A stretch of 57,047 nucleotides of DNA from a virus. Under the pieces are notes generated by a model. It had not been told where the DNA came from. It did no database searches and worked only from the letters and a program-made list of their open reading frames with translations. Below are positions 6,181 through 56,679 of the stretch, piece by piece; position 1 is the first letter of the stretch; each line of letters begins with the position of its first letter. A program made the translations under genes and the position numbers. The stretch spans positions 1 through 57,047 of IMG/VR virus record IMGVR_UViG_3300021077_000161; one strand, 5' to 3'.

Positions 6181-6975
6181 ATGAGTGTAAATATCAAAGA
6201 GAAAACACATACTTATTGCGATCTTAATACAGGGATGACAATCACAGAAAAATTGCCTCCAGGAAGATTTCTTGAGCTAGGAGAAAAGCTTGAAAAAGGA
6301 GACCTTGCTTTAAACGACTATGAGAAGTCGTTTAAAACCCGAACTCTTCCAGGATCTCCAAGCGGAGGAGCTAAAAATTACTATCGCCCTTACCCCAAAG
6401 ACCATGTAGGAGTCGGATACCGTCTTATTGAAGATGGAGAGATTTTTCAAACAGGAGACGAGTGTTGTTCGCCACCAAACACAGTGTGGACTTCTTGTAA
6501 CTATATGAATGGATACGAAAAGGATGGCCTTGCCTGCCTTTATCGTCGTAAGATTGATCAGCCAGTAATAAATAAACGAACCTATTTTGTAACCGAGACG
6601 ATTACTAAAGAGGTTGAAGAGGTTTTATCTCCCGGCAGATATCTTGTCCCAGGAGATGTTCTTCGATCTGGAGACCTTTATGTTGCAGACAAAAACATGA
6701 AAGCAACTCCGGTTGTTGATTTCAATTTTGGGCTCAAGGTCAGTACAGGGCAATACGATATTAACGCATGGTATCGTCCAACCCCAGTAGAGCCACCTAA
6801 ATCTATCAAAACTAAGGCTAAAGCTAAGAAGACTTACAGTATTTTAAAGTGGGGGACAGCTCTTCAAAAAGGAGATCAGGTCTACAATTCAAAAACTAGA
6901 GGGTGGTCTAATATTTCGTATGGCATTATTGGCTGGATTTACTATACAGGAAAGTATCGCCGCCCAACTACTTAG
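6181..6975 (+). CDS. GDE-repeat protein (four copies)
   Basis: 264 residues made almost entirely of four units of the recurring domain. They start with GRFLELGEKLEKGDLAL, YRLIEDGEIFQTGDECC, GRYLVPGDVLRSGDLYV and YSILKWGTALQKGDQVY, and end in YRP, YRRK, YRP and YRRP respectively. Short K/P linkers join them. The strong promoter and AGGAG SD suggest early or high expression. Copies 1 and 3 (GRFL..GDL type) alternate with 2 and 4, as in the 38348 gene, so the pair is probably the unit of duplication. No known function. It overlaps the convergent 6968 gene by 8 nt. Confidence 0.7.
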   Translation: MSVNIKEKTHTYCDLNTGMTITEKLPPGRFLELGEKLEKGDLALNDYEKSFKTRTLPGSPSGGAKNYYRPYPKDHVGVGYRLIEDGEIFQTGDECCSPPNTVWTSCNYMNGYEKDGLACLYRRKIDQPVINKRTYFVTETITKEVEEVLSPGRYLVPGDVLRSGDLYVADKNMKATPVVDFNFGLKVSTGQYDINAWYRPTPVEPPKSIKTKAKAKKTYSILKWGTALQKGDQVYNSKTRGWSNISYGIIGWIYYTGKYRRPTT

Positions 6976-8100: not shown

Positions 8101-8176
8101 CTTGCAATCCTATTTGTGTCCTTGGAAATATTTTAAGCGTCTTTAACGCAATTAGTCTTTATAAACCTATATTTAA

Positions 8177-8214
8177 TAGATTGTTGTTGACTTCTCCTTT
8201 ATTCATGATAAAGT
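8177..8214 (+). promoter_or_regulatory. Promoter with AGATTGTTGTTGAC boundary element
   Basis: TAGATTGTTGTTGAC spans 8177-8191, with -35 TTGACT at 8187-8192 and a -10-like TAAAGT at 8209-8214 after 16 nt. It drives the lipoprotein gene at 8237, which has an AAGGAG SD. The opposite strand leads to the 8100 gene. Confidence 0.65.
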
Positions 8215-8236
8215 CTTATCTAAAGGAGCAAAAACA

Positions 8237-8644
8237 ATGACAAAAATCTTCTTCATCTTTATTATTCTTTCAGGATGTTCAAACACGGCTTTCGTAGTAA
8301 AAGAGCCTATAGCTAGTTCTCCGTACAGGTGGAGAGATATAAGGTCTAAGGGAATGCTTGGAGACGACTTGCTGTTGTCGGTTGGCAGCCCTGTTGGTGT
8401 TTGTAACACTGCAGAATGTTACAGAAAGGTGTACAAGGAGCAATCCGCAAAAAACAAAAAAGCAAGTAAAGATCCATTTGAGGACTTTTCTCATAACGAT
8501 CTTGTTCTTGATGAGGCTTTTAGATCTGCAAACAAGGCGTCTAAAAAGAAAACTTTGGTATTTCCAGATGATGGACTTGAGGATCAGCTTCTGTTTGAAA
8601 ACATAGCTGGGCAGTTGGATCTTAGCCCCCTGGTTAAACCATAG
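8237..8644 (+). CDS. Phage lipoprotein
   Basis: 135 residues with a clear lipoprotein signal: MTKIFFIFIILSGC, where LSGC is a good lipobox and Cys14 would be lipidated. The mature part is charged, with one Cys pair (VCNTAEC), so an inner- or outer-membrane location in a Gram-negative host is expected. A strong promoter and SD precede it. Early phage lipoproteins often block superinfection by altering receptors or DNA entry; that role is inference here. No family is recognised. Confidence 0.7.
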   Translation: MTKIFFIFIILSGCSNTAFVVKEPIASSPYRWRDIRSKGMLGDDLLLSVGSPVGVCNTAECYRKVYKEQSAKNKKASKDPFEDFSHNDLVLDEAFRSANKASKKKTLVFPDDGLEDQLLFENIAGQLDLSPLVKP

Positions 8645-8653
8645 TCTTTTAGA

Positions 8654-8974
8654 ATGCTCTCACCTAGAAAAAGAAACTATCACGCTGAGTGGCTGAAGAC
8701 AAAATCTAGGCTTAACGTAAGGCGCAATTTTCTTATTATCAAGCTTGGTGGGCAATGTCGGCTTTGTAGATCTACTAAAAATCTAGAGCTAGACCATCCT
8801 GACGGAAAGAACTGGGAGGCAAGGAAGTTTAGTCCACAAATGAGAATGAAACGGTACGAAGAAGATTATGAAAACGGTCAATTAGATTTGCTGTGCAAGA
8901 GCTGTAATTGTAGAGACGGTGCGTTAAACAAAGATTTTTATGGCGCAGTAAGACATAATAAAGCTCCGTTTTGA
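8654..8974 (+). CDS. HNH-like nuclease/zinc protein
   Basis: 106 residues. A Cys pair (CRLC), then LELDHPDG (the HNH His), then a second Cys pair (LLCKSCN) form the zinc-and-catalysis layout of HNH/His-Me finger nucleases. Basic N- and C-termini fit DNA binding. The Asp-His and CN signature support the fold; activity is unproven. It may be a free-standing homing nuclease or a replication/packaging nuclease. The SD is weak, and its stop overlaps the next gene's possible TTG start. Confidence 0.7.
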   Translation: MLSPRKRNYHAEWLKTKSRLNVRRNFLIIKLGGQCRLCRSTKNLELDHPDGKNWEARKFSPQMRMKRYEEDYENGQLDLLCKSCNCRDGALNKDFYGAVRHNKAPF

Positions 8975-8982
8975 AAGACAAA

Positions 8983-9615
8983 ATGAACCGACCAAAAGAT
9001 ATAGAAAACCGAAAACTACCAGATAACCCTAAATGGATTAAGGATCATGTCATCTTTCTAACCGTATCAGGTAGTAAAAGTTACGGGACAGATATAGAAG
9101 GAAGTGACACTGATCTAAAAGGAGTTTGTACACTACCTCCTGACGTTGTTTTTGGGTTTCAAGAAAAATTCGAACAAGTACAAACGAAAACCCCAGACGA
9201 TTTAGAAATCTTTAGCCTGTTAAAGTTCGCCAAGCTTGCTGTAGATAACAACCCCAATATATTAGATATCCTGTTTGTCGACGATAGTTCTATACTGGTT
9301 TCTACTTCAGAGTGGAACAAAATCAGAGACATCAAAGAGAAGTTCTTGTCTAAACGAATTGCTTCTACCTTTGCTGGTTATGCAAGATCTCAGCTACATA
9401 AAATAAAAGGTCATAGAGGATATCTATTAAATCAGGTTAAAACAATTCCCACAAGGGAAGAGTTTGGCTTACCAGCTAGATGTTTAGTCCCAAAATTGCA
9501 TGCCGCTGACTCAGCTGTTCAAAAGCAGCTTGATAGTTTAGCTGGAGATTGGTCTATAGATAAAAACAAACAAATTGATCTATATAAAGATGTCGCTAAG
9601 GGCCTGGGGGTTTGA
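8983..9615 (+). CDS. COG3541-type nucleotidyltransferase, N-terminal part (frameshifted gene)
   Basis: Residues ~29-47 (SGSKSYGTDIEGSDTDLKGV) carry the polymerase-beta-type nucleotidyltransferase signature GS...GT...SDxD, with metal-binding Asp at 42 and 44. Such phage proteins transfer nucleotides to unknown targets. The frame closes at TGA 9613-9615 inside a region that should continue; the C-terminal half lies in the next frame at 9590-10021. Removing one G from the GGGGG run at 9605-9609 joins the two. I start at ATG 8983; an in-frame TTG exists at 8971. Confidence 0.75.
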   Translation: MNRPKDIENRKLPDNPKWIKDHVIFLTVSGSKSYGTDIEGSDTDLKGVCTLPPDVVFGFQEKFEQVQTKTPDDLEIFSLLKFAKLAVDNNPNILDILFVDDSSILVSTSEWNKIRDIKEKFLSKRIASTFAGYARSQLHKIKGHRGYLLNQVKTIPTREEFGLPARCLVPKLHAADSAVQKQLDSLAGDWSIDKNKQIDLYKDVAKGLGV

Positions 9616-10021
9616 TTCTAATTTTATAGAGCTTTTGTACAAAGAAAAGAAGTATGCTGTTTTGATAGCAGAGCAAGAAGCCTATAACAATTGGGCTAAG
9701 TCAAGGAACCCTAAGAGAAAAGCTTTAGAAGAAAAATACGGGTATGACACAAAGCATCTGATGCATCTTGTTAGAATCTATAGAGAATGCCTAGAATGCC
9801 TACAAACAGGGACACTTGAAGTAAAAAGACACGACGCTAAAGAGCTAGTGGAAATTCGACAAGGCGGTTGGCCATTTGAAAAAGTCGAGGCTTGGGCAAG
9901 TGACGCAGAGAAACAAGTTCAAATTGCCCTAAAAGAAACTAAATTACCTGCTAGACCTGACTTAGAAACAATAAATAGCGTAGTACAGCAAATAGTTAGA
10001 ACTGCTGCTACTAGGAATTAA
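9590..10021 (+). CDS. COG3541-type nucleotidyltransferase, C-terminal part
   Basis: The 143-residue frame carries the typical C-terminal half of COG3541 nucleotidyltransferases: EEKYGYDTKHLMHLVRI, then KELVEIRQGGWPFEKVE. It overlaps the upstream part by 26 nt in a +1 frame. There is no SD before the ATG at 9590, so independent translation looks unlikely. It is best read as the second half of one ~345-residue protein broken by a single base in a G run. Ribosomal slippage or sequencing error are both possible. Confidence 0.65.
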   Translation: MSLRAWGFDSNFIELLYKEKKYAVLIAEQEAYNNWAKSRNPKRKALEEKYGYDTKHLMHLVRIYRECLECLQTGTLEVKRHDAKELVEIRQGGWPFEKVEAWASDAEKQVQIALKETKLPARPDLETINSVVQQIVRTAATRN

Positions 10022-10703
10022 CCGTTTTGCACAAATTTTTACATGCTGCCAAATATGGAGTTAATTGAAAGGTTCCAGCTTTAAGCTCTTGTAATTTTTG
10101 GGAAAAGTATAATCTTACCCATTTTTTAAAAGGCCACATCCAGTAGTATGAAGAATCGCTAAAATTACCAACAATCCAATCCAGATAATCAGACTCATTC
10201 CCTAAGGTGCCCGACCAATAATCAACAGCAATTGACACAGTGTACCCTCTGATTTCAATATACGCTCTACCAAAGGCCGGGATGGGGGCCAAAAACAAAA
10301 GAGACAGCAACCCCCACAGCAACCACAAAGGCCCACCCAACAGCAAGATAGGAAGAATGGTGATAGAATAAAGGACCCCTAAGATACCTATTAGTTGAGG
10401 AAGCAAATATCCAACATCAAAAACAATATTAGATATTTTTTGGGCATCTTGGGCGTGTTGAATTTCATGTAATGCGATCTGCCAAATGTAAGGTTCGTTC
10501 CCTGTTAACCAAGCATCAGGAAAGGCAGTTGTTTGATGTATTGTGGTTCCGTAATTGGTCATGTAATCTTTATTACCTATCTTACTAAAGATCCACCCAA
10601 TTGTTTTATGTAACGTTGAGTTATTTTTAGGAACAATTTTATAGGTAGGGCAAAAGAGCTTACCTAAATCAATAGCTTTTTGGAGTTTTTCTTTTTCGAT
10701 CAT
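10011..10703 (-). CDS. Membrane-associated zinc-metalloprotease-like protein
   Basis: 230 residues from ATG 10703. ALHEIQHAQDA around residues 77-87 contains HExxH (79-83), the zinc site of metallopeptidases. A downstream Glu in AYIEIRGY (about 150) could be the third ligand. Between them lie two or three hydrophobic segments (about 95-142), so the protein is membrane-embedded. I recognise no exact peptidase family. No SD is visible; the boundary element CAATCTTTTG lies a few bases before the ATG. It converges with the nucleotidyltransferase. A lysis or host-takeover role is speculation. Confidence 0.55.
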   Translation of the reverse strand: MIEKEKLQKAIDLGKLFCPTYKIVPKNNSTLHKTIGWIFSKIGNKDYMTNYGTTIHQTTAFPDAWLTGNEPYIWQIALHEIQHAQDAQKISNIVFDVGYLLPQLIGILGVLYSITILPILLLGGPLWLLWGLLSLLFLAPIPAFGRAYIEIRGYTVSIAVDYWSGTLGNESDYLDWIVGNFSDSSYYWMWPFKKWVRLYFSQKLQELKAGTFQLTPYLAACKNLCKTVNS

Positions 10704-11994: not shown

Positions 11995-12466
11995 GCCAGG
12001 TAATTATAGCCGCTGAAACAATACTTGCTATTGCTGTACCAGCTAAGGTAAAGATTCGATTGCGACGTTCTTTTTTGGCTACCCTGGCTTCTTCTAGAAC
12101 AGCTTCTGCTTTTATTCTGGATTCTTCTAAGACGGCTTCGGCTTTTAACTTAGCTTTTTCTAAATCTTCTAGTTCTTGAGTATCGTGCTTATTCGCCTTA
12201 CACTCTAAACTGCTAAGCCTAGTTCCATAATTCGATGTGTCAATTCTCATGGTTGTAAACCCGGCAACCATACCTTTTATATCAGCCTTCATGTCCTCGA
12301 ACCCAACATTTAAGTTGTCTACAGCCTCTGCTACTCTACCCAATATTGGTAACATTTGAGTTGTTTGCATCTCTAATCTCCCCAAACGTTTTATTGTATC
12401 TGACACAATAATTGAGTTAGTGTCTGAACTTTTGTCCTCTGACGTGCCTATCCGGTTGACGCCCAT
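11981..12466 (-). CDS. Coiled-coil tail-anchored protein with a transposon-derived N-terminus
   Basis: 161 residues. The first 7-8 residues (MGVNRIGT) are encoded by the right end of TnpB element A, and identical residues begin the ORF after element B. The rest is helical with an Ala/Glu/Lys coil (KLKAEAVLEESRIKAEAVLE) and ends in one membrane segment (IFTLAGTAIASIVSAAIITW). The original N-terminus may have been replaced by the insertion. The topology resembles the 5595 protein. Its ATG overlaps the TnpB stop (TAATG), so it may depend on TnpB transcription. Function unknown. Confidence 0.6.
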   Translation of the reverse strand: MGVNRIGTSEDKSSDTNSIIVSDTIKRLGRLEMQTTQMLPILGRVAEAVDNLNVGFEDMKADIKGMVAGFTTMRIDTSNYGTRLSSLECKANKHDTQELEDLEKAKLKAEAVLEESRIKAEAVLEEARVAKKERRNRIFTLAGTAIASIVSAAIITWLKLK

Positions 12467-12520
12467 TAGCTTACCCGGCTTTCGTCAACACGAGGCGCGG
12501 CACTGCGCCCGATCATGAGG
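12443..12520 (-). ncRNA. Guide-RNA (omega-RNA)-like right end of TnpB element A
   Basis: The 3' end of the TnpB gene and the following bases form a structured segment. A GGCGC/GCGCC hairpin is followed by a TCGT-GTTG-ACGA hairpin, AAAGC, then the end CCGGATAGGCACG (12443-12455 on the + strand, reverse-complemented). Elements B and the solo locus at 45 kb share the order and the end. In TnpB systems the guide is the sequence just outside this end, here starting TCAGAGGAC. That this RNA is made is inference. Confidence 0.6.
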
Positions 12521-13542
12521 ATGTTCCGGGCCGCGTTTACATCGCGGTCGTGGCTTGCGCCACAATCAGAACACACCCACTCTCTTATTCCAAGACCTGC
12601 GATACCTTTCGGCCTCGACTCGGGGCGTGAGCCACAAGTCGAACAGGTTTGGGTTGTAAAACTTTCGTCGACTTCTAGAAACGTAGCTCCGTGCCTGCTG
12701 GCTTTGTAGCGGAGCATGTCCCTGAACGTTGACCATCCCGCGTCAAGCACGGACTTTGCCATCCGTGTCTTCGCCAGGCCAGCCGCGTTCACGTTGCCGA
12801 CGACGATCAATCTGTTTGCGTCGGCCAGTTTGGCTGACGCCTTGTGTAAATAGTCCTTTCGTTGGTTCTTTATTTTTGTGTGAATAGCCTTTGCTCTTTT
12901 AGAATTATTTGCTCTTTGAGCTATCGACAATTTCTCTTCGAGCTTTCGATAGCTTGTTGGGTTTTCAATCTTCTCACCGTCACTTGTTGTTGCTAAGGTC
13001 TTCAGACCTAAATCAACCCCAACTTCTCCAACGCCAGTAGGCAACCCACCAACCTTAACATAAAAACAAACCCACCATTTACCAGAAGAATCTTCAACAA
13101 AACAGCCACCTGTAGCATTACTGGGAAGTGGACTGCGCTTCGCGCCAAAGAACTTATAGGTATGACCTAGATAGGTTATTGAATTCATTGATACTTGTCT
13201 AGATTGTTCTTTAAAAGGCACCCAACCTAAAGATCTCTTTGATCCTGAAGACTTACGAAACTTTGGACATTTTTTGTGTTGATCACGGCTCTTCGAGAAC
13301 TGTTCATCAACGCACTGTACCGTCTGAGCATGTAATCCAAGCTCTTTAGAAGTTCCTTTAGTTAATTTTTGTAAATCAAAGTGGCTTGGCCATTTCTTGT
13401 AAGATCCTAGTTTGTAAATTTCTTGGACCTTCCTCTGCGAAGCAGTACAGAAATTCCAGACCTGATTGACCGCCCAAGAAAATTCTCGAAGAGACCTAGC
13501 TACCCTATGGCCCTTGAGTCTATATTTATAAGTTAAAATCAT
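12466..13542 (-). CDS. tnpB: TnpB RNA-guided nuclease homologue, copy A
   Basis: 358 residues of the IS605 OrfB family. The N-terminal helix-turn domain contains AVNQVWNFCTASQRK. RuvC-I is GVDLGLKTLA (Asp177). The zinc finger is C300-C303 and C324-C327, and RuvC-III is HDRDVNAARN (Asp334). The usual RuvC-II Glu (IVVED..) is replaced: here IVVGNVNAAGL, Gly249. Possible alternative acidic residues are Glu290 and Glu293 in LEVDESFTTQTC. TnpB lineages with a relocated Glu are known, as are nuclease-dead derivatives. Copy B has the same change. The 3' end overlaps a guide-RNA-like structure. Confidence 0.9.
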   Translation of the reverse strand: MILTYKYRLKGHRVARSLREFSWAVNQVWNFCTASQRKVQEIYKLGSYKKWPSHFDLQKLTKGTSKELGLHAQTVQCVDEQFSKSRDQHKKCPKFRKSSGSKRSLGWVPFKEQSRQVSMNSITYLGHTYKFFGAKRSPLPSNATGGCFVEDSSGKWWVCFYVKVGGLPTGVGEVGVDLGLKTLATTSDGEKIENPTSYRKLEEKLSIAQRANNSKRAKAIHTKIKNQRKDYLHKASAKLADANRLIVVGNVNAAGLAKTRMAKSVLDAGWSTFRDMLRYKASRHGATFLEVDESFTTQTCSTCGSRPESRPKGIAGLGIREWVCSDCGASHDRDVNAARNILMIGRSAAPRVDESRVS

Positions 13543-13552
13543 AATTTGTTAC

Positions 13553-14047
13553 CTAACCGGAGAAGTATGTGCTATTGTAGAGAGCGTTTATCTTTAAAAT
13601 GTCTTGCTGCGAAATTTGTTCCGGTGAGTCGCAACTTTCTATATAACTAACCCCTAACAAATGACAAATTTCTTCAAGGGTTACTTGTAGCGTTAAGCAA
13701 GGGCTAGTTTCCGACTCAGGAAGCTCCACAATTGCTGATATAGGGGATTCGTCTTCTTTGTAGAAGGTAACGACTCCCTTTGTTGCGTTGTGTTGTTTGC
13801 AGTCCTTTATGTAGACAACGCCTTTAGGGGGTATCAGGCCTTCCCTTTCTATACCTACAGCTAATTTGTTTGTGGCCTCTTGCGGCTCCCTTAGTATCTT
13901 TTTGTGGCCCGCCGAGTTAACCTGATAGCAGCAACAGGAAAAAGCAGCTCTAAACCTAAGCCTTAAAATTGGGCTGTAAAGGACTGTTAAAGGCAGGAGT
14001 TCATTAGCCCAAATACGGCCAAGGCTATCTTGAGTAGTTCCAATCAC
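13553..14047 (-). CDS. Hypothetical protein, 3' end altered by element A
   Basis: 164 residues, soluble, with an acidic C-terminal half (SETSPCLTLQVTLEEICHLL). The last codons (TYFSG, stop TAG) lie in the left end of TnpB element A, so the native C-terminus may be lost. The N-terminus has several Cys (AFSCCCYQVNSAG). I recognise no family. It is part of a minus-strand group with the rubredoxin-like and DnaJ-like genes upstream. Confidence 0.55.
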   Translation of the reverse strand: MIGTTQDSLGRIWANELLPLTVLYSPILRLRFRAAFSCCCYQVNSAGHKKILREPQEATNKLAVGIEREGLIPPKGVVYIKDCKQHNATKGVVTFYKEDESPISAIVELPESETSPCLTLQVTLEEICHLLGVSYIESCDSPEQISQQDILKINALYNSTYFSG

Positions 14048-42865: not shown

Positions 42866-42905
42866 TTGAAAGCATGCTTATCCGGTTGATGCCCACAGAA
42901 CCCAA

Positions 42906-43985
42906 ATGATTATCACCTACAAATACCGTCTCAAAGGATCTCGCGTTGCGAGAACGTTGAGGCACCATGCATGGGCAGTCAACCAAGTGTGGAATTTCTG
43001 CACGGCATCCCAACGGAAAGCTCAGGAAATCTACCGTCTGGGTTCCACTAGTAAGTGGCCGTCTCGGTACGCTTTACAGGGTCTAGCCAATGGCACTTCC
43101 AAAGAACTCGGGGTACACGCCCAGACCGTTCAAGGTGCCTGTGAGCGCTTCGCGCGTAGCCGCGACCAACACAAGAAGTGTCCTAAGTTTCGTCGCTCTT
43201 CGGGATCGAAACGATCTCTAGGCTGGGTTCCCTTTCAAGAACAGTCCCGTCAAATCACGCCTTCTTCGGTAACCTACCTAGGACGCACTTACCGATTCTT
43301 CGGAGCAAAGCGGCGTCCGCTTCCTAGCAACGCAAAGGGTGGTTGTTTTGCCGAGGATTCTTCCGGGAAGTGGTACGCGTGTTTTCAGGTTGAGGTAGGT
43401 ACCCTTCCTACCGGCACCGGCCAGGTCGGAATCGACCTTGGGCTGAAAACCCTCGCCACTACTAGCGACGGGGAGAAGATAGCGCATCCGGCTTTCTTCC
43501 GAGCTACCGAAGAGAATCTCGCAATCGCCCAAAGGGCTCACAACACTTCCAGAGTCAAAGCACTTCATGCGAAGGCTAAGAATCAACGAAAGGACTACCT
43601 ACACAAAGTATCGGCGAAGCTCGCCGACGCAAACCGTTTGATCGTAGTTGGCAACGTGTCGGCATCAAAACTGGCGAAGACAAGCATGGCAAAGTCCGTA
43701 CTTGATGCCGGTTGGAGTATGCTGAGAGGGTTTCTTGCTTATAAAGCCAGTAGGCATCAAGCGACCTTCATCGAAGTCAATGAAGCATTTACGACCCAAA
43801 CCTGTTCCGCTTGTGGGGATCGATCCTCCGAGGGGAGGCCGAAAGGTATCGCAGGGCTTGGAATAAGAGAGTGGAGATGTTCAGCTTGTGGGGTGACCCA
43901 CGACCGTGATCGTAACGCGGCCCTGAATATCTTGAATCTCGGGCTGAGTGCTCAGCCTCGTGTTGACGAAAGCCGGGCCGCCTAA
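42906..43985 (+). CDS. tnpB: TnpB RNA-guided nuclease homologue, copy B
   Basis: 359 residues, closely similar to copy A (12466) along its length. RuvC-I GIDLGLKTLA, zinc finger CSACGD and CSACG, RuvC-III HDRDRNAALN. As in copy A the RuvC-II site lacks Glu: IVVGNVSASKLAKT, Gly in place of the canonical acid, with EVNEAFTTQTC as candidate alternative. Copy B is more uniform in base composition than copy A. The 3' end contains hairpins that match a guide-RNA structure. The stop TAATG overlaps the next ORF. Confidence 0.9.
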   Translation: MIITYKYRLKGSRVARTLRHHAWAVNQVWNFCTASQRKAQEIYRLGSTSKWPSRYALQGLANGTSKELGVHAQTVQGACERFARSRDQHKKCPKFRRSSGSKRSLGWVPFQEQSRQITPSSVTYLGRTYRFFGAKRRPLPSNAKGGCFAEDSSGKWYACFQVEVGTLPTGTGQVGIDLGLKTLATTSDGEKIAHPAFFRATEENLAIAQRAHNTSRVKALHAKAKNQRKDYLHKVSAKLADANRLIVVGNVSASKLAKTSMAKSVLDAGWSMLRGFLAYKASRHQATFIEVNEAFTTQTCSACGDRSSEGRPKGIAGLGIREWRCSACGVTHDRDRNAALNILNLGLSAQPRVDESRAA

Positions 43986-44008
43986 TGGGCGTCAACCGGA
44001 TAGGCACG
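43935..44008 (+). ncRNA. Guide-RNA (omega-RNA)-like right end of TnpB element B
   Basis: GGCTGAG-TG-CTCAGCC (43942-43957) then TCGT-GTTG-ACGA (43958-43969), AAAGC, and the end ACCGGATAGGCACG. Compared with element A the first stem changes in sequence but keeps pairing, a covariation. The guide would begin at about 44009 (GTTGGTGCCC). Transcription is inferred from other TnpB systems. Confidence 0.65.
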
Positions 44009-44188
44009 GTTGGTGCCCTTACCGAAGCTGAGAATCCTAAGGTTAAGGAATATGCAGACCAGCGTCGTGAAGAAATGAAGAACCCGGTTGATGAACACAG
44101 TAAAAATTATCATGAACGAAGGTTAAATAAAAATAAAACTGAAGCAAAAGCGTCATTGATTAGACAAATTAAAGGAGAAACAGAATGA
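43985..44188 (+). CDS. Small ORF starting in the TnpB right end
   Basis: 67 residues beginning MGVNRIGTVGALTEAENPKV, the first 8 encoded by the transposon end as in the 11981 ORF. The rest (EYADQRREEMKNPVDEHSKN) is highly charged and helical. It was probably a phage gene before insertion; its real N-terminus may be lost. The stop overlaps the ATG of the 44185 gene (ATGA). Confidence 0.5.
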   Translation: MGVNRIGTVGALTEAENPKVKEYADQRREEMKNPVDEHSKNYHERRLNKNKTEAKASLIRQIKGETE

Positions 44189-44544: not shown

Positions 44545-44925
44545 ATGTCAGTAAAAACGATTAATAATAAAGTGGCCTGTTATCCGTTTGAGCCAGGGCA
44601 AATCACAGACATTAGTAAAAAGAAACTGGCTACAGTCACAGGGGAATCTAAGGTCGTAGAGCTTTTTGTTTGTTATGAGACAGAGCTTACCGACGGGCTA
44701 TATGTTGGTGAAAATGATGTGATTTTTGTCAAGACAGCTAGCATTAACTCTCCTTGGGCTAAAGAAAAATTTACTTTTCAAGGGGTAGAGGGTAGTGTAG
44801 AGTTTATTTTGGTGCCCATTAACGAAATTGTTCTAATTGATCGTAACGGAGCCTCGTGTAGTGAAGTGTGCGATGAATGCAAAGCTAAGGAAGAGGCAAA
44901 GAAAGAGCCCCCAAAGGTAAATTAA
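44545..44925 (+). CDS. Beta-rich protein, faint GroES-like pattern
   Basis: 126 residues. KTINNKVACYPFEPGQITDI, GLYVGENDVIFVKTASINSP and FILVPINEIVLIDRNGASC have the order of a co-chaperonin-like barrel (a GDxVxF-like strand and a final EI-type strand). The C-terminus has a Cys pair and charged end (CSEVCDECKAKEEAKKEPPK). The likeness to GroES or T4 gp31 is weak and by eye. SD AAGGAG. Confidence 0.45.
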   Translation: MSVKTINNKVACYPFEPGQITDISKKKLATVTGESKVVELFVCYETELTDGLYVGENDVIFVKTASINSPWAKEKFTFQGVEGSVEFILVPINEIVLIDRNGASCSEVCDECKAKEEAKKEPPKVN

Positions 44926-44934
44926 AAGATCTCT

Positions 44935-45142
44935 AGTTACTACAAAGGATACATATTCCAACAGGAAACCTTTGTAACTTAACGAAAAGATTAGGGTTTT
45001 CTTAATCTAACTCTTTATAAAAGTAGCCGAAAGGCAATGCTAGGTTAAAATAAGGGCAATTTAAATGCCCGAGCGGAGTGTCACGCTTCTTGTAGAAGAA
45101 AGCTGGTGAAGTTAAAATAGTAACTAACCGGATAGGCACGGA
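44935..45142 (+). ncRNA. Stand-alone TnpB-type guide RNA (omega-RNA) relic or solo element
   Basis: A 208-nt gene-free stretch with several paired segments and no long ORF. It ends AACCGGATAGGCACG (45126-45140), identical for 14 bases to the right ends of TnpB A and B. Before it are AGCG...CGCT with a GAGTG loop, CTTCTTGTAGAAG and AAAGC, the same order as in A and B but with different bases that still pair. Further upstream, ACAAAGG pairs with CCTTTGT and GGGCA with TGCCC. The following bases GAGTGGATAAAACG would be the guide. No tnpB lies within it. The SbcD GTG start overlaps its end. Confidence 0.65.
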
Positions 45143-46117
45143 GTGGATAAAACGTTAGTTGTAGGTGATGTGCATGCGGTTCCACAGGAGCTTCCTGATT
45201 GTGAGGCTCTTGTGGAACTTATTGTCGATAGTGTAAAAAAGCATAAATGTGAAACCGTTTTGTTTTTAGGAGATAGCTTTCACACTCACGACATTTTGAA
45301 TAGTCGCGTTATTGATTTTTGGCTCAGAGCGTTTAAAAGAATGTGTAGTAGTGGGGTTAACGTTATAACCATTTGCGGCAATCATGACCAGCTCACTCCT
45401 ACAATCAGAAGCCCTCATGCGCTAGAAGCTTTTAAAAATTCGTGCATCGTTGTTGATTCTCCAATTCAACATAACGATTGCTGCTTTATGCCATACTATT
45501 GGAACCCGGAAGAGTTTGTAGAAGAAGCAGTAAAGCTAAAAGATCAAAATCCAGATGTAGACACTTTGTTTTGTCACCAGACCTTTATGGGAGTAGGATA
45601 CCTGTCTAAAGACTCTGTAGAACCTTCTGCTGTGCCGTTTAAACGTGTCTTAAGTGGCCATATCCACACTCCTATGAAGCTAGGTAAAGTGTGGTATATT
45701 GGGGCTCCTCGTTGGCGTACACTATCCGATGCAGACATAGAAACAAGAAACCTGTATGTTTTAGAGCAGGGCAAAGCTCCTGTAGCAATCCCTACAAATA
45801 CACATTGTGTTAAAATTTATAAGTTTGAGGATTCTGAAGAACAACCTCTTAGCATTAACTTGACTCAAGACGAATTAACTAGGTCTGATATTAGAATAAC
45901 CATAAATGGTAGCTCAGCTTACATCTCTAAACGTATGCTTGAGTTAAAAGCACAATACAACGCAAAGTGTCGTGGGGTTCCTATTAGAAATAAATTAGCC
46001 AAAGCCTCAGAGTCAGAAGGTATTCAAAACGCCTTTATTCGCTTTGGAAGTAATTTCAACCCACCGAATGGAACAGATAGAGAGTTTTTGTTGAAGGAAA
46101 CTTATGGAAGAATGTAG
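45143..46117 (+). CDS. sbcD: SbcD/Mre11-like nuclease
   Basis: 324 residues, GTG start. Phosphoesterase motifs: VVGDVHA (7-12), GDSFHTHD (about 43-50), GNHDQ (about 79-83), and SGHIHTP. These are the metal-site blocks of Mre11/SbcD/T4 gp47 nucleases. It would partner the SbcC homologue at 40772. The C-terminal ~90 residues form the capping or DNA-binding part. The start lies at the end of the guide-RNA-like locus, and no SD is evident because of it. Confidence 0.82.
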   Translation: MDKTLVVGDVHAVPQELPDCEALVELIVDSVKKHKCETVLFLGDSFHTHDILNSRVIDFWLRAFKRMCSSGVNVITICGNHDQLTPTIRSPHALEAFKNSCIVVDSPIQHNDCCFMPYYWNPEEFVEEAVKLKDQNPDVDTLFCHQTFMGVGYLSKDSVEPSAVPFKRVLSGHIHTPMKLGKVWYIGAPRWRTLSDADIETRNLYVLEQGKAPVAIPTNTHCVKIYKFEDSEEQPLSINLTQDELTRSDIRITINGSSAYISKRMLELKAQYNAKCRGVPIRNKLAKASESEGIQNAFIRFGSNFNPPNGTDREFLLKETYGRM

Positions 46118-46119
46118 TA

Positions 46120-46320
46120 ATGCTTAAAAAAATTGAAAATGGCGAATTTGTTCAAGATGAAGACAGAAAGAACGTTGTTGTAGTTATTTATGATAGCGAC
46201 ATTGAAGATACCATGGAAGACGTACAAGAAGCGTTAGATTCGATTGGGGCAGGTGTTCGAATTACCATTCTTGCCTCTGACAGAGAACGCACTGATTTTA
46301 TTTTTGAAAAGGCAAGGTAA
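46120..46320 (+). CDS. Small hypothetical protein
   Basis: 66 residues, alpha/beta: NVVVVIYDSDIEDTMEDVQE then ALDSIGAGVRITILASDRER. The start follows the SbcD stop by 2 nt and the stop abuts the next ATG. No family is recognised. Part of the plus-strand operon leading into the terminase genes. Confidence 0.55.
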   Translation: MLKKIENGEFVQDEDRKNVVVVIYDSDIEDTMEDVQEALDSIGAGVRITILASDRERTDFIFEKAR

Positions 46321-46758
46321 ATGACAGACAATAAACCCAAGCCTCTTGACTGGTCTGCGCAGCTAGTTTTACTTCGAGGGCTTACACAGCGCTTTGGTTC
46401 TTTACATTCCGCTCAAGTGTTACAGTTGCGCCTTTGGCCGTTCGTAGTTGACTCTTCTCTAGATAAAACAGAAGCCCATGTAGACATTGAAGGCAAATTT
46501 GTTAATTTTATTTGGATTGGTTCTAAGAAAAAGATTGACGCAAAATACCAATATAGACTTAAGACTTTGGACTCTAACGTTAAATTTTTGCTAGGTGAGG
46601 ACTGGTCTATGTCGGTTGTTTGTGACGGTGTAACAATCTTTCCTTTGGATACAAATAATGGAACCCGAAATAATCGAAGCCGAAGTGGTAAGCCAAGAGT
46701 CAACAAAAATAGAAAAACAAGAACCAAAAAATCAAGAGCTAACAGAAAGAAAAAATAA
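46321..46758 (+). CDS. Hypothetical protein with basic, overprinted C-terminus
   Basis: 145 residues. The body (WSAQLVLLRGLTQRFGSLHS, then DWSMSVVCDGVTIFPLD) is an ordinary fold. The last ~35 residues (TRNNRSRSGKPRVNKNRKTR) are extremely basic. They lie in the 101-nt overlap with the small terminase gene, so their composition is partly set by the other frame. They could bind DNA. Family unknown. Confidence 0.5.
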   Translation: MTDNKPKPLDWSAQLVLLRGLTQRFGSLHSAQVLQLRLWPFVVDSSLDKTEAHVDIEGKFVNFIWIGSKKKIDAKYQYRLKTLDSNVKFLLGEDWSMSVVCDGVTIFPLDTNNGTRNNRSRSGKPRVNKNRKTRTKKSRANRKKK

Positions 46759-47371
46759 GGTAACTTGGCTTAGTGAGTCAGAAAACCACGCTTTAGAGTA
46801 TTTTAGAAACAATAAAGCCGGAGATCTAAAACTAGGTAGCAATTCGTTTTCTATAGCCCCTTCAGTTCAAGCCCAGCTGTTTGCTTTGTATCTAAACGGT
46901 AAGTCTTGTACTGAAATCAGAAAACTGAACCCTAATTTTTCTTTAGGACAAGTTGTTGACGCAGCTGTTCAAGGAGACTGGGAAACTCAAAAACAAGAAT
47001 ACCTAAATGGCTTAATGAAAAAAGCCAGAGACCGCCTACAACAAACTGGATGCGAAGCCATAAGCTTCCTTGCAGATCAATTAGCCGCTGCGCACAAAAT
47101 GCATGGTGATTCAGTAGCTAAATATCTACAAACTGGCGATCCAGCTGACCTAGGTTCGTTTGGCATTGGGTCTATGAAACAATATAGAGATGCGTTAGAG
47201 TTATTGCTTAGTGCGTCAGGAGCTAACAAAACCTCTACACTCAACGTTCAAGGTGAAGTCTTACATACCTCTAACATGAATACCCCTCCAGCTTCTTCGG
47301 TTTCTACTGGTAATCCTGGGTTGTCTTTGAGAGAATTAGCTGCTCAAAAGAAAAACAAAGAGGTTAAGTAA
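46658..47371 (+). CDS. Terminase small subunit
   Basis: 237 residues. The N-terminal 45 residues are acidic and disordered. A helix-turn-helix region lies about 60-100 (APSVQAQLFALYLNGKSCTE, then LNPNFSLGQVVDAAVQGDWE), followed by helices (ISFLADQLAAAHKMHGDSVA). Gene order directly before the large subunit supports the call. Small terminases recognise the packaging site and stimulate the ATPase. The stop is TAATG with the following HNH gene. Confidence 0.72.
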   Translation: MEPEIIEAEVVSQESTKIEKQEPKNQELTERKNKVTWLSESENHALEYFRNNKAGDLKLGSNSFSIAPSVQAQLFALYLNGKSCTEIRKLNPNFSLGQVVDAAVQGDWETQKQEYLNGLMKKARDRLQQTGCEAISFLADQLAAAHKMHGDSVAKYLQTGDPADLGSFGIGSMKQYRDALELLLSASGANKTSTLNVQGEVLHTSNMNTPPASSVSTGNPGLSLRELAAQKKNKEVK

Positions 47372-47583
47372 TGGAAGAAGTAAAAACAAAGAAGTGTGCT
47401 ATTTGCGGAATTCAGGTTGAGGGGAGATTTGTTCACATAGATCACAATCACGTTACAGGCATGATAAGAGGAGTCCTTTGTAGATCTTGCAATATTGGAA
47501 TAGGAGCCTTCAAGGACTCTTCCCAAACAATAAGGAAAGCTTTTTCTTATTTGAGCACGTATGGTGAAGGTAATGCCAATTAA
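47371..47583 (+). CDS. Endonuclease VII-like HNH protein
   Basis: 70 residues. CAICG, then FVHIDHNHVTGMIRGVLCRS with CN, matches the recombination endonuclease VII (T4 gp49) core: zinc Cys pairs and the catalytic DH. The gene overlaps the large-terminase start by 23 nt. HNH/endoVII proteins next to terminases often assist DNA packaging, and T4 gp49 resolves branches for packaging. A larger two-domain homologue is at 49606. Confidence 0.82.
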   Translation: MEEVKTKKCAICGIQVEGRFVHIDHNHVTGMIRGVLCRSCNIGIGAFKDSSQTIRKAFSYLSTYGEGNAN

Positions 47584-49585
47584 TTTATCTTCAGAAGAAG
47601 AAGCTTTAAGACGCCTTTTATTTAAGCCATGTACTACAATCCAAGAGCTTCATGACTGGGTGTATATATATTGTGACGTAGATCTCCCTGGATGTCACGT
47701 TGATCCTGATTCTACAGGCAGTCCTTTAGAGATGTGTTATGAGACCTATGATTTGTTAGTTAATGGCGGGCCTGAAAACATCAGTAGGGTTTTGTACTAT
47801 GCTAGCCGAGGCGGTTTCAAGACTCTTGTAGAAAGTATCGTAGAGGTTCTTTTGTTGCTTCACTTTAGAAGCAATGTTATTCATTTGAGTGCAATCGAGG
47901 AGCAAAGTAAAAACTGTCAAGAGTATTTAAAGAACTTTTTTGCTTTTCCAGCTCTTAGAGGGTTTGTTGAAGGAGATAACAAGAGAGCTACTTCAACTGT
48001 TTTTTACGAACCTCTTGATAAAAATGGACTGAACCTTACTAAAGCAGAATGGAAAGACCTCCCTTGGAATGAGCAACAACAGTATAAATTAGTAACAAAT
48101 AAGGTAGAAGTTATTGTTGCTACAGTCAAGAGTACAAATGGGAAGCATGGCGTCATGTTTTTGGACGAGCTTGATATTATTGACTCTCCTCGTGTTTTAG
48201 CTCAAACAGTTAATATTCCAACTCCTTGTAGAAGGGCAAATGGAGAAGTAGCGTTACCCGTTACGGTGATCACGTCCACAAGGAAGACTAGCCATGGCCC
48301 AGTGCAGGATGCTATTAACAAGGCCGATAAAACAGGACTGTTAATACGTCACTGGAATGCAATTGATGTTACTGAAAGGTGTCCTAAGACTAGACATAGA
48401 CCAGATCTTCCTCGTATAACTGTATATCGTTCTGATGAATTGGTATCTGCTATTACTGAAGAAAACTATAATGCTCTACCTAAAAAAGATCAAGAGCCCT
48501 ACGTAAAAGATGAGTGCTATTCGGGGTGCCTAAAAAATTGCTCTTTGTTTGCTGCTTGTAAAGGAAATCTAATTGACAAGCAGACTTCTGATTCAAAACT
48601 TCTTAAGCCAATCAGTTTTCAGATAAATCAGTTTAAAGACAGCCCTCTAGATATTGTTCAATCTGAACTTTTGTGCAGAAAACCTTCATCTGAAGGGCTT
48701 ATATATCCAAGATTAGATAAAGTGAAACATTTGTTAACCCCTGCTCAAGCATATGAAAAGATATCGGGGGAAAGGTGTCCATTACGTAATTTTAGTAAAG
48801 CAGAACTAGTAGAGTGGCTAATGGGTAAGGGTGAATGGTATGGTGCATTAGACTGGGGTTGGAGCCATTTTTTCGCATATTGTCAAGGAATAGACATAAA
48901 CAATGTTATGTATATAATTTTTTCGTTTGCCGGATCTGAGTTAGAACGATCTCAACAACTTGAGGAGATGGAAAAATTTAGAAGATTTGAGCCTACTATT
49001 TGGCCAGATTTGGAAGATCCATTAGCTGTTAGGGAATTTAAAAAAGCTGGATTTAGATTAAAAACATGGAATAAAAACCAAGGGAGTGTTGTTGGAGGAA
49101 TAAATATAGTTAGAAAAAAACTAAGCCCAACGTTAGGAAGACCTCCTGAGTTATATTTTGTTAGGGACCTAGGCAAAGATCCTCATATAGATCTTTTATT
49201 TCAACACCTTAGCGAACACCACTGGAAATTGGGAGCAACCGGAGAGCCTACCAATCAAGTGTCAGATACTAAGAAAGACTTGCCCGACTCATTGCGCTAT
49301 TTAGTGATGAATAAGTACTCAGATAAAGGCTCCTTTGCAATATCTCAAGAAGCTGAAAGTCAACCAAAGATATTGTCTCAAGATGGGCAGCCGGTTTATC
49401 ATGCTGGAAGTTGGATGTCTCAAAAAATAAGTGAATTAACTGGAGGGGAGATCCGCCCCCCACAAACTAGTAGACCTTTAATGACCATTGAAGAAATCGG
49501 GCACAGCTATTACGGTGAAGTCAATGAGAAAGAGAAAAAAGACCGTAAAGGAAAATCTAGAAATATCGTATGGGACTTTGAATAA
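47561..49585 (+). CDS. Terminase large subunit
   Basis: 674 residues. Walker A-like ASRGGFKT (about 81-88), Walker B VMFLDELDII (about 197-206), and a nuclease-type Asp in WYGALDWGWSHFF (about 427). The N-terminal ATPase translocates DNA and the C-terminal nuclease cuts it. A Cys cluster, CYSGCLKNCSLFAAC (about 322-336), lies between the two domains and is less common. Start: ATG 47561; the GAAGG before ATG 47573 makes that a good alternative. Confidence 0.88.
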   Translation: MVKVMPINLSSEEEALRRLLFKPCTTIQELHDWVYIYCDVDLPGCHVDPDSTGSPLEMCYETYDLLVNGGPENISRVLYYASRGGFKTLVESIVEVLLLLHFRSNVIHLSAIEEQSKNCQEYLKNFFAFPALRGFVEGDNKRATSTVFYEPLDKNGLNLTKAEWKDLPWNEQQQYKLVTNKVEVIVATVKSTNGKHGVMFLDELDIIDSPRVLAQTVNIPTPCRRANGEVALPVTVITSTRKTSHGPVQDAINKADKTGLLIRHWNAIDVTERCPKTRHRPDLPRITVYRSDELVSAITEENYNALPKKDQEPYVKDECYSGCLKNCSLFAACKGNLIDKQTSDSKLLKPISFQINQFKDSPLDIVQSELLCRKPSSEGLIYPRLDKVKHLLTPAQAYEKISGERCPLRNFSKAELVEWLMGKGEWYGALDWGWSHFFAYCQGIDINNVMYIIFSFAGSELERSQQLEEMEKFRRFEPTIWPDLEDPLAVREFKKAGFRLKTWNKNQGSVVGGINIVRKKLSPTLGRPPELYFVRDLGKDPHIDLLFQHLSEHHWKLGATGEPTNQVSDTKKDLPDSLRYLVMNKYSDKGSFAISQEAESQPKILSQDGQPVYHAGSWMSQKISELTGGEIRPPQTSRPLMTIEEIGHSYYGEVNEKEKKDRKGKSRNIVWDFE

Positions 49586-56574: not shown

Positions 56575-56587
56575 ATCAGTAATTTGT

Positions 56588-56659
56588 CAGAGTGGGAAGA
56601 TTTGAACTTCCGACTTTCTGTTTCCAAAACAGAAGCGCTACCAGGCTGCGCTACACTCT
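56588..56659 (-). tRNA. tRNA-Pro (TGG)
   Basis: On the minus strand the acceptor AGAGTGT pairs with CCACTCT with one mismatch. The D arm is GCGCAGCCTGGTAGCGC, the anticodon arm TTCTGT-TTTGGAA-ACAGAA with anticodon TGG (Pro). The T arm GGAAG TTCAAAT CTTCC is perfect. CCA is not encoded. The boundary element at 56666-56683 lies upstream on the same strand and may serve as promoter. Confidence 0.85.
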
Positions 56660-56679
56660 AGTGTTTTAAAGATTGTTAT

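What the first reader, a model, noticed from the sequence alone, without database searches (positions are those of the whole stretch)
44935..45142. Stand-alone TnpB-type guide RNA locus without a tnpB gene
The last 14 bases (ACCGGATAGGCACG) match the right ends of both TnpB elements. The upstream hairpins occur in the same order (GAGTG-loop stem, short hairpin, AAAGC) with compensatory changes. No nuclease gene is inside. The locus sits between sbcC and sbcD genes and could supply a guide in trans to the two TnpB proteins, or be a decayed element.
Basis: partly seen in the sequence, partly recalled or inferred. Interest (0 to 1): 0.8.

Follow-up and report, generated by a model that had tools for sequence, protein, structure and literature searches.

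The report
Stand-alone TnpB guide-RNA mini-element in phage

Summary
A covariance model built without this locus scores it at 53 bits (E=6e-13); bare transposon ends score 16-25. Six of six base pairs changed on both sides stay paired. No tnpB lies inside.

(1) The locus belongs to a family: one 117-kb phage contig has 12 stand-alone copies, 8 with both ends, 5 of those flanked by perfect 8-bp target duplications. (2) Their ends match the terminal inverted repeats of IS1595-family DDE elements in the same and other phages, so the guide scaffold's 3' end doubles as a cut-and-paste transposon end. (3) In relatives the upstream gene abuts or overlaps sbcD; here 217 nt intervene. It is an inserted mini-element, more like the stand-alone family than like this phage's own tnpB elements, and its left terminus is lost while the guide RNA and right end are intact.

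Best reading: an immobilised omegaRNA-only element, probably still chargeable in trans by the phage's two TnpBs, with a guide reading the start of sbcD. Folding and ancestry are shown; loading, target and present function are inferred. An inert relic is the main rival. New variant of a known kind.

The parts
44926..45142 (+). Insert between the small ORF 44545-44925 and sbcD 45143-46117
   Evidence: Homologues of both genes abut or overlap (about -8 to +15 nt in most) in related phage contigs; none has an omegaRNA there
44934..44942 (+). TAGTTACTA, remnant of the left inverted repeat; the outer 13-14 nt (CATGCTTATCCGG in relatives) are missing
   Evidence: Read from sequence; exact inverse of 45118-45126. 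Could also be part of the local hairpin 44935-44978
44935..45008 (+). Two 5' hairpins of unknown role (AGUUACUACAAAGG../CCUUUGUAACU and GAUUAGGG../UUAAUC)
   Evidence: Fold of 44935-45015 z = -3.2
45025..45055 (+). 5' part of the omegaRNA core: stem AGC/GCU around CGAAAGGCAAU, then AATAAGG
   Evidence: Same motif in stand-alone elements and in tnpB genes; one compensatory pair
45054..45070 (+). Short middle hairpin GGGCA-AUUUAAA-UGCCC, replacing about 90 nt of tnpB coding sequence
   Evidence: Same register as GGTCCA/TGGATC of the mini-elements, two double compensations
45068..45140 (+). 3' domain of the omegaRNA: helix 1 (45072-45075/45084-45087), helix 2 (45089-45091/45096-45098), GAAAGCUGG with CUGG (45103-45106) pairing CCGG (45128-45131), hairpin 3 (45110-45114/45121-45125)
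   Evidence: Covariance model without this locus: 53.3 bits, E=6e-13; pair counts; folds
45127..45140 (+). Right end ACCGGATAGGCACG: 3' end of the guide scaffold and also an IS1595-type inverted repeat
45141..45160 (+). Presumed guide, GAGTGGATAAAACGTTAGTT, covering the GTG start (45143) of sbcD
   Evidence: Position by analogy with TnpB right ends; no other match in the window
42873..44008 (+). TnpB1 element: LE CATGCTTATCCGGTTGATGCCCA, tnpB 42906-43985, omegaRNA, RE GCACG; possible trans partner
   Evidence: Pfam PF07282 and PF01385, NCBIfam guided_TnpB; 98% identical copies at another site in two other phage contigs
12443..13569 (-). TnpB2 element, tnpB 12466-13542; possible trans partner
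   Evidence: 75% identical to TnpB1
45143..46117 (+). sbcD-like metallophosphoesterase gene, start codon 2 nt after the right end
   Evidence: Pfam Metallophos; N-terminus aligns with Myxococcus phage Mx1 from residue 1

Best explanation
The locus is a stand-alone TnpB guide RNA (omegaRNA/reRNA) that arrived as a mini-element: a TnpB element stripped to its guide RNA, with ends resembling IS1595-family inverted repeats, which inserted between a small gene and sbcD of a Myxococcus-phage-Mx1-like phage (shown by comparison). It has since lost its left terminus, so it is probably immobile, but keeps the whole RNA fold and the right end (shown). Inferred mechanism: the RNA is transcribed with the sbcD operon, is bound and trimmed by TnpB1 or TnpB2 made elsewhere in the genome, and its 3' extension (GAGTGGATAAAACGTT...) directs cleavage of the same stretch in co-infecting or sister genomes that lack the insert and carry a suitable TAM. 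That would spread or protect this allele as a trans-powered gene drive. Its own copy is spared because CACG, not the presumed TAM (CATG-like, inferred), precedes the guide.
For: A covariance model without the locus detects it. The 3' fold shows covariation beyond all shuffles and slid controls. Against the nearest mini-element, 19 of 22 pairs are kept through 17 substitutions and 6 of 6 double changes are compensatory, p = 2e-4 with random positions and 4e-3 with the same positions. The family exists: 12 stand-alone copies in contig G001, 8 with both ends and 5 of those with perfect 8-bp duplications, alongside an IS1595 element with the same ends and duplication ATCGGGAT. Insertion is shown by synteny. 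Two full-length tnpB genes lie in the same record, each with RuvC aspartates and the alternative glutamate six residues before the zinc finger (criterion in PMC10711439). All 13 distinct omegaRNA-bearing right ends read CACG against 8 of 82 other ends of this repeat family. TnpB acting as a gene drive against copies lacking the element is documented for plasmids (PMC11870625).
Against: There is no RNA evidence. No uninserted sibling was found, so target and TAM at this site are unknown. Mini-elements with target duplications sit at sites with no common motif, so many of their guides would not match a fixed TAM. Compensatory changes prove past, not present, selection. Trans loading by TnpB1/2 was not tested; the locus is closer to stand-alone relatives than to the omegaRNAs of TnpB1/2.
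Confidence: 0.55

Rival explanations
1. Inert relic: the same mini-element, no longer transcribed or used, decaying in place after losing its left end. The conserved RNA fold is inherited from the time when the lineage was mobile.
For: The left terminus is gone; 3 of 22 pairs are broken; a single copy; no sibling shows retention; in G001, 4 of 12 copies also lack an intact left end.
Against: All long invariant motifs and the 14-nt right end are intact after the locus drifted to 37% GC, close to its AT-rich surroundings (42% window), which argues for long residence without structural decay.
Confidence: 0.3
2. Cis-regulatory leader of sbcD: the retained RNA and right end serve translation or processing of the sbcD mRNA (GGATAGG lies 6-12 nt before the GTG start), with TnpB processing, if any, tuning sbcD.
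For: The right end ends 2 nt before the sbcD start codon; the insertion separated sbcD from a gene it abuts or overlaps elsewhere, so a new ribosome site is needed.
Against: The ribosome-site match is weak; it does not explain conservation of the helices and of GCCGAAAGG/AATAAGG far upstream.
Confidence: 0.1
3. Recent internal-deletion product of the window's TnpB1 or TnpB2 element.
For: Identical 14-nt right end; both elements are in the same record.
Against: Differs in the middle hairpin and TGTAGARGARAGCYGG block, which match the stand-alone family instead; 53 bits against 82-93 for the TnpB ends.
Confidence: 0.04
4. Chance resemblance, or only a shared transposon end.
For: A 14-mer with up to 3 mismatches is expected by chance about twice in the window.
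Against: E=6e-13, and about 30 bits above sequences that carry only the end.
Confidence: 0.01

Closest known systems
TnpB reRNA/omegaRNA of IS200/IS605 elements (ISDra2 type)
   Same: Guide scaffold at the element's right end, guide supplied by flanking DNA; two homologous TnpBs in the same phage
   Different: No tnpB in the element; the coding middle is replaced by a short hairpin; the ends are long inverted repeats shared with IS1595
PATEs and other non-autonomous IS605 derivatives (Haloquadratum, PMC3119063)
   Same: Transposase-free short elements derived from TnpB-bearing elements by core deletion, more numerous than full copies
   Different: PATEs have no terminal inverted repeats and cause no target duplication; here the relatives have both
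IS1595-family insertion sequences and their MITEs
   Same: Terminal repeats CATGCTTATCCGGTTGAYRCCCA and 8-bp target duplications
   Different: Interior is an omegaRNA; the right terminus reads CACG rather than CATG; locus 3 itself lacks the left terminus and a duplication
Fanzor1 / Fanzor2* elements in eukaryotic DDE transposons (PMC10711439)
   Same: RNA-guided nuclease lineage moved into cut-and-paste transposons whose inverted repeats form part of the guide scaffold; alternative RuvC glutamate
   Different: Prokaryotic virus; DLG not DPG at RuvC1; stand-alone RNA with no nuclease gene
Stand-alone trans-acting omegaRNAs reported for IscB (own knowledge: Altae-Tran et al. 2021; not readable here)
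   Same: Guide RNA loci away from the nuclease gene
   Different: Different nuclease family; no IS1595-type ends known to me
TldR, phage-encoded nuclease-dead TnpB regulators (abstract seen, PMC13418256)
   Same: Phage-borne TnpB-family guide use
   Different: The TnpBs here keep a plausible catalytic triad; no guide match to a host promoter was tested

Membership tests
TnpB omegaRNA/reRNA | Sequence and structure homology to the right-end RNA of a tnpB gene | tested here: met
   53.3 bits, E=6e-13 with a model lacking the locus; covariation
TnpB omegaRNA/reRNA | Scaffold ends at the element boundary, flanking DNA is the guide | tested here: inconclusive
   Right boundary inferred from 13 distinct right ends and 5 duplications; RNA 3' end not measured
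TnpB omegaRNA/reRNA | Transcribed and bound by TnpB | not testable with these tools
   Needs RNA and protein experiments
TnpB omegaRNA/reRNA | A TnpB encoded in cis (usual for the family) | tested here: not met
   No tnpB between 44926 and 45142; nearest is TnpB1 at 42906-43985
IS1595-type MITE | Terminal inverted repeats of an IS1595 element | tested here: not met
   For locus 3 only the right repeat is present, plus a 9-bp subterminal match on the left; met by 8 of 12 stand-alone relatives in G001
IS1595-type MITE | 8-bp target duplication | tested here: not met
   None at locus 3; 5 of 8 relatives with both ends, and IS1595 elements with the same ends, have it
IS1595 family (partner element) | DDE_Tnp_IS1595 transposase between the same repeats | tested here: met
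   PF12762 E=1e-34 and NF033547 above cut-off for the encoded proteins; one such element in G001
PATE | No terminal inverted repeats, no target duplication | tested here: not met
   Relatives have both; locus 3 itself has lost its left end
Fanzor / pro-Fanzor (for the TnpB partners) | DPG at RuvC1 and alternative glutamate | tested here: not met
   Alternative glutamate present, but RuvC1 is DLG in TnpB1 and TnpB2

The most novel reading that the evidence does not exclude
Phages host a class of guide-writing mini-transposons: omegaRNA-only elements mobilised by an IS1595 DDE transposase, each jump writing a new guide from the landing site, all served in trans by a few TnpB copies. Locus 3 is a domesticated member whose fixed guide is aimed at the sbcD allele of rival phages.
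Probability: 0.22. Interest if true: 0.9.

Novelty: new variant of a known kind. Interest (0 to 1): 0.7.

Why it matters
It shows a TnpB guide RNA decoupled from its nuclease gene in a virus, with the 3' end of the guide scaffold also serving as the terminal repeat of a DDE transposon. That is a prokaryotic parallel to how Fanzors came to live in eukaryotic cut-and-paste transposons, and a multi-guide, one-nuclease arrangement reminiscent of a step towards CRISPR arrays. It is directly testable: small-RNA sequencing, plus a plasmid-interference assay with TnpB1/2 and this RNA.

Tried and rejected
Rfam found only a tRNA-Pro in the window, so neither a known group I intron nor a curated omegaRNA family matches. 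The sbcD protein used alone as a query found no relative in IMG/VR; the alignment with Mx1 SbcD did. No empty site was found for the L004/L005 TnpB1 copy. No mini-element in GenBank phages or PLSDB plasmids at blastn sensitivity. No second match to the guide in the window or fetched loci, and only weak chance-level hits in GenBank phages. The GTDB genome scan with TnpB1 gave only distant Bacillus/Paenibacillus TnpBs. The broader viral pattern added no convincing new stand-alone members; its new hits showed no omegaRNA context by eye. TnpB-bearing elements show no target duplication although their ends match IS1595; a CATG insertion rule like IS605 was considered and is noted as an inference only. 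No paper found linking TnpB with IS1595 elements (search; the five papers holding both words were judged by title and abstract only).

Full report
WHAT IS THERE. The 14-mer ACCGGATAGGCACG lies exactly at the right ends of TnpB1 (44008 +) and TnpB2 (12443 -) and at 45127-45140. The three loci also share AAAGCYGG at the same distance. A covariance model of the 3' domain built from nine relatives without this locus gives 53.3 bits, E=6e-13, while sequences sharing only the terminal repeat score 16-25 bits.

RNA-LEVEL CONSERVATION. On 14 distinct sequences the 18-pair structure is 92% paired; the covariation score is 0.305 against 0.120 in shuffles (0/500 as high) and at most 0.076 when the partners are slid. 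The alignment was fitted to the model, which leans towards the structure, but helices 1 and 2 sit between invariant anchors. Locus 3 supplies unique pair types, A-U in helix 1 and U-A in helix 2. Compared with the nearest mini-element at registers fixed by that element, 19 of 22 pairs are canonical after 17 substitutions, and all six pairs changed on both sides are canonical (p about 2e-4 with random positions, 4e-3 with the observed positions). The alignment for that test was made by eye.

THE FAMILY. A pattern scan for the short spacing typical of the stand-alone form hit three other IMG/VR contigs. One, IMGVR_UViG_3300050119_000104 (117 kb, G001), has 12 stand-alone omegaRNAs and several tnpB genes. 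Eight of the 12 have both ends; five of those eight are flanked by perfect 8-bp direct repeats (AAACATAA, AAGAGACC, CAACAAAG, CACTGGAG, GAAGGCTT). The terminal repeat TGCYTATCCGGTTGAYRCCCA occurs in 60 IMG/VR stretches. Many are elements of about 1.5-2.6 kb with perfect 8-bp duplications; the proteins examined from these are IS1595-family transposases (PF12762, NF033547). G001 carries one such IS, at 8172-10421, with duplication ATCGGGAT. Thus the 3' end of the guide scaffold coincides with an IS1595-type inverted repeat, and stand-alone omegaRNAs move, or moved, with target duplications, presumably by IS1595 transposase in trans (inference).

THE INSERTION IN THE WINDOW. The phage resembles Myxococcus phage Mx1 (SbcD 34% identical). 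In relatives found with an SbcD alignment, homologues of the small ORF 44545-44925 abut or overlap sbcD, and none carries the omegaRNA. In the window 217 nt separate the two genes. The right end lies 2 nt before the sbcD GTG start, whose N-terminus aligns with Mx1 from residue 1. The left terminal repeat is missing except for a 9-bp subterminal match, TAGTTACTA/TAGTAACTA. In G001 four of the 12 stand-alone copies likewise lack an intact left end while keeping the right end and the RNA.

THE POSSIBLE PARTNERS. TnpB1 and TnpB2 are full-length members of the RNA-guided TnpB family. The canonical RuvC-II glutamate is replaced (IVVGNV), but a glutamate lies six residues before the zinc finger, and DLG and HDRD motifs are present. 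This is the alternative-glutamate arrangement described for Fanzors and a clade of TnpBs (PMC10711439), so they are probably active nucleases (inference).

A POSSIBLE TAM. All 13 distinct omegaRNA-bearing right ends read CACG, whereas 66 of 82 other ends of this repeat family read CATG and 8 read CACG (Fisher p = 6e-11; the elements are related, so this is not a true probability). A right end reading CATG would put the left-end tetranucleotide directly before the guide. Removing the TnpB1 element but keeping CATG restores an ATG start to a 60-aa ORF (MVGALTEAENPK...). Both fit a CATG-like TAM in the way ISDra2 uses TTGAT (PMC8612924), but neither proves it. The stand-alone copies with duplications have no common motif before the guide, so for them the TAM logic is unresolved.

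MECHANISM. Most likely the locus is an immobilised omegaRNA-only element whose RNA can still be charged in trans by TnpB1/2; its guide reads the sbcD start and would act against genomes without the insert, as TnpB does for plasmids (PMC11870625). Shown: homology, fold, family, insertion. Inferred: transcription, loading, target, benefit. The main rival is an inert relic that still looks well folded because the family was constrained until recently.

NOVELTY. Non-autonomous IS605 derivatives (PATEs, PMC3119063) lack inverted repeats and duplications. Fanzor1 and Fanzor2* show nuclease and guide RNA inside eukaryotic DDE transposons, with the inverted repeats in the scaffold. No paper found in the library links TnpB to IS1595 elements. 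Stand-alone omegaRNAs are known for IscB (own knowledge). The combination here is a new variant of a known kind.

Noticed in passing
G001 = IMGVR_UViG_3300050119_000104 (L057-L062): A phage contig with 12 stand-alone omegaRNAs, five tnpB-like genes (three with the same ends) and an IS1595 element; one mini-element sits inside the left end of a tnpB element with duplication GAAGGCTT.
   Followed up: partly
window 12443-13569 (TnpB2): Mosaic composition: the first about 700 nt are 34-46% GC, the last about 400 nt 53-61% GC and closer to TnpB1, suggesting RNA constraint or gene conversion.
   Followed up: partly
window 42873-44008; L004 9803-10938; L005 8842-9977: TnpB1 is 98% identical in two other phage contigs at a different site, at 54% GC in a 42% GC genome: recent spread between phages, without target duplications.
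   Followed up: partly
window 44009-44188: TnpB1 sits exactly at the start of a 60-aa ORF; joining the flanks with CATG restores its ATG.
   Followed up: yes
L063-L114: A phage-borne IS1595 group with repeats CATGCTTATCCGGTTGACACCCA, 8-bp duplications, MITEs and additional ORFs (one resembles a DNA methyltransferase by eye).
   Followed up: partly
window 45143-49585: Order sbcD, two small ORFs, long ORF (674 aa) parallels Mx1 (sbcD, two hypotheticals, terminase large subunit); the contig looks like a fragment of an Mx1-like phage. tRNA-Pro at 56587-56660.
   Followed up: no
G001 orphan ends at 6528, 18707, 19208, 115967, 111442: All orphan ends noted are right ends (5 right, 0 left), hinting at selective retention of the omegaRNA end.
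   Followed up: no
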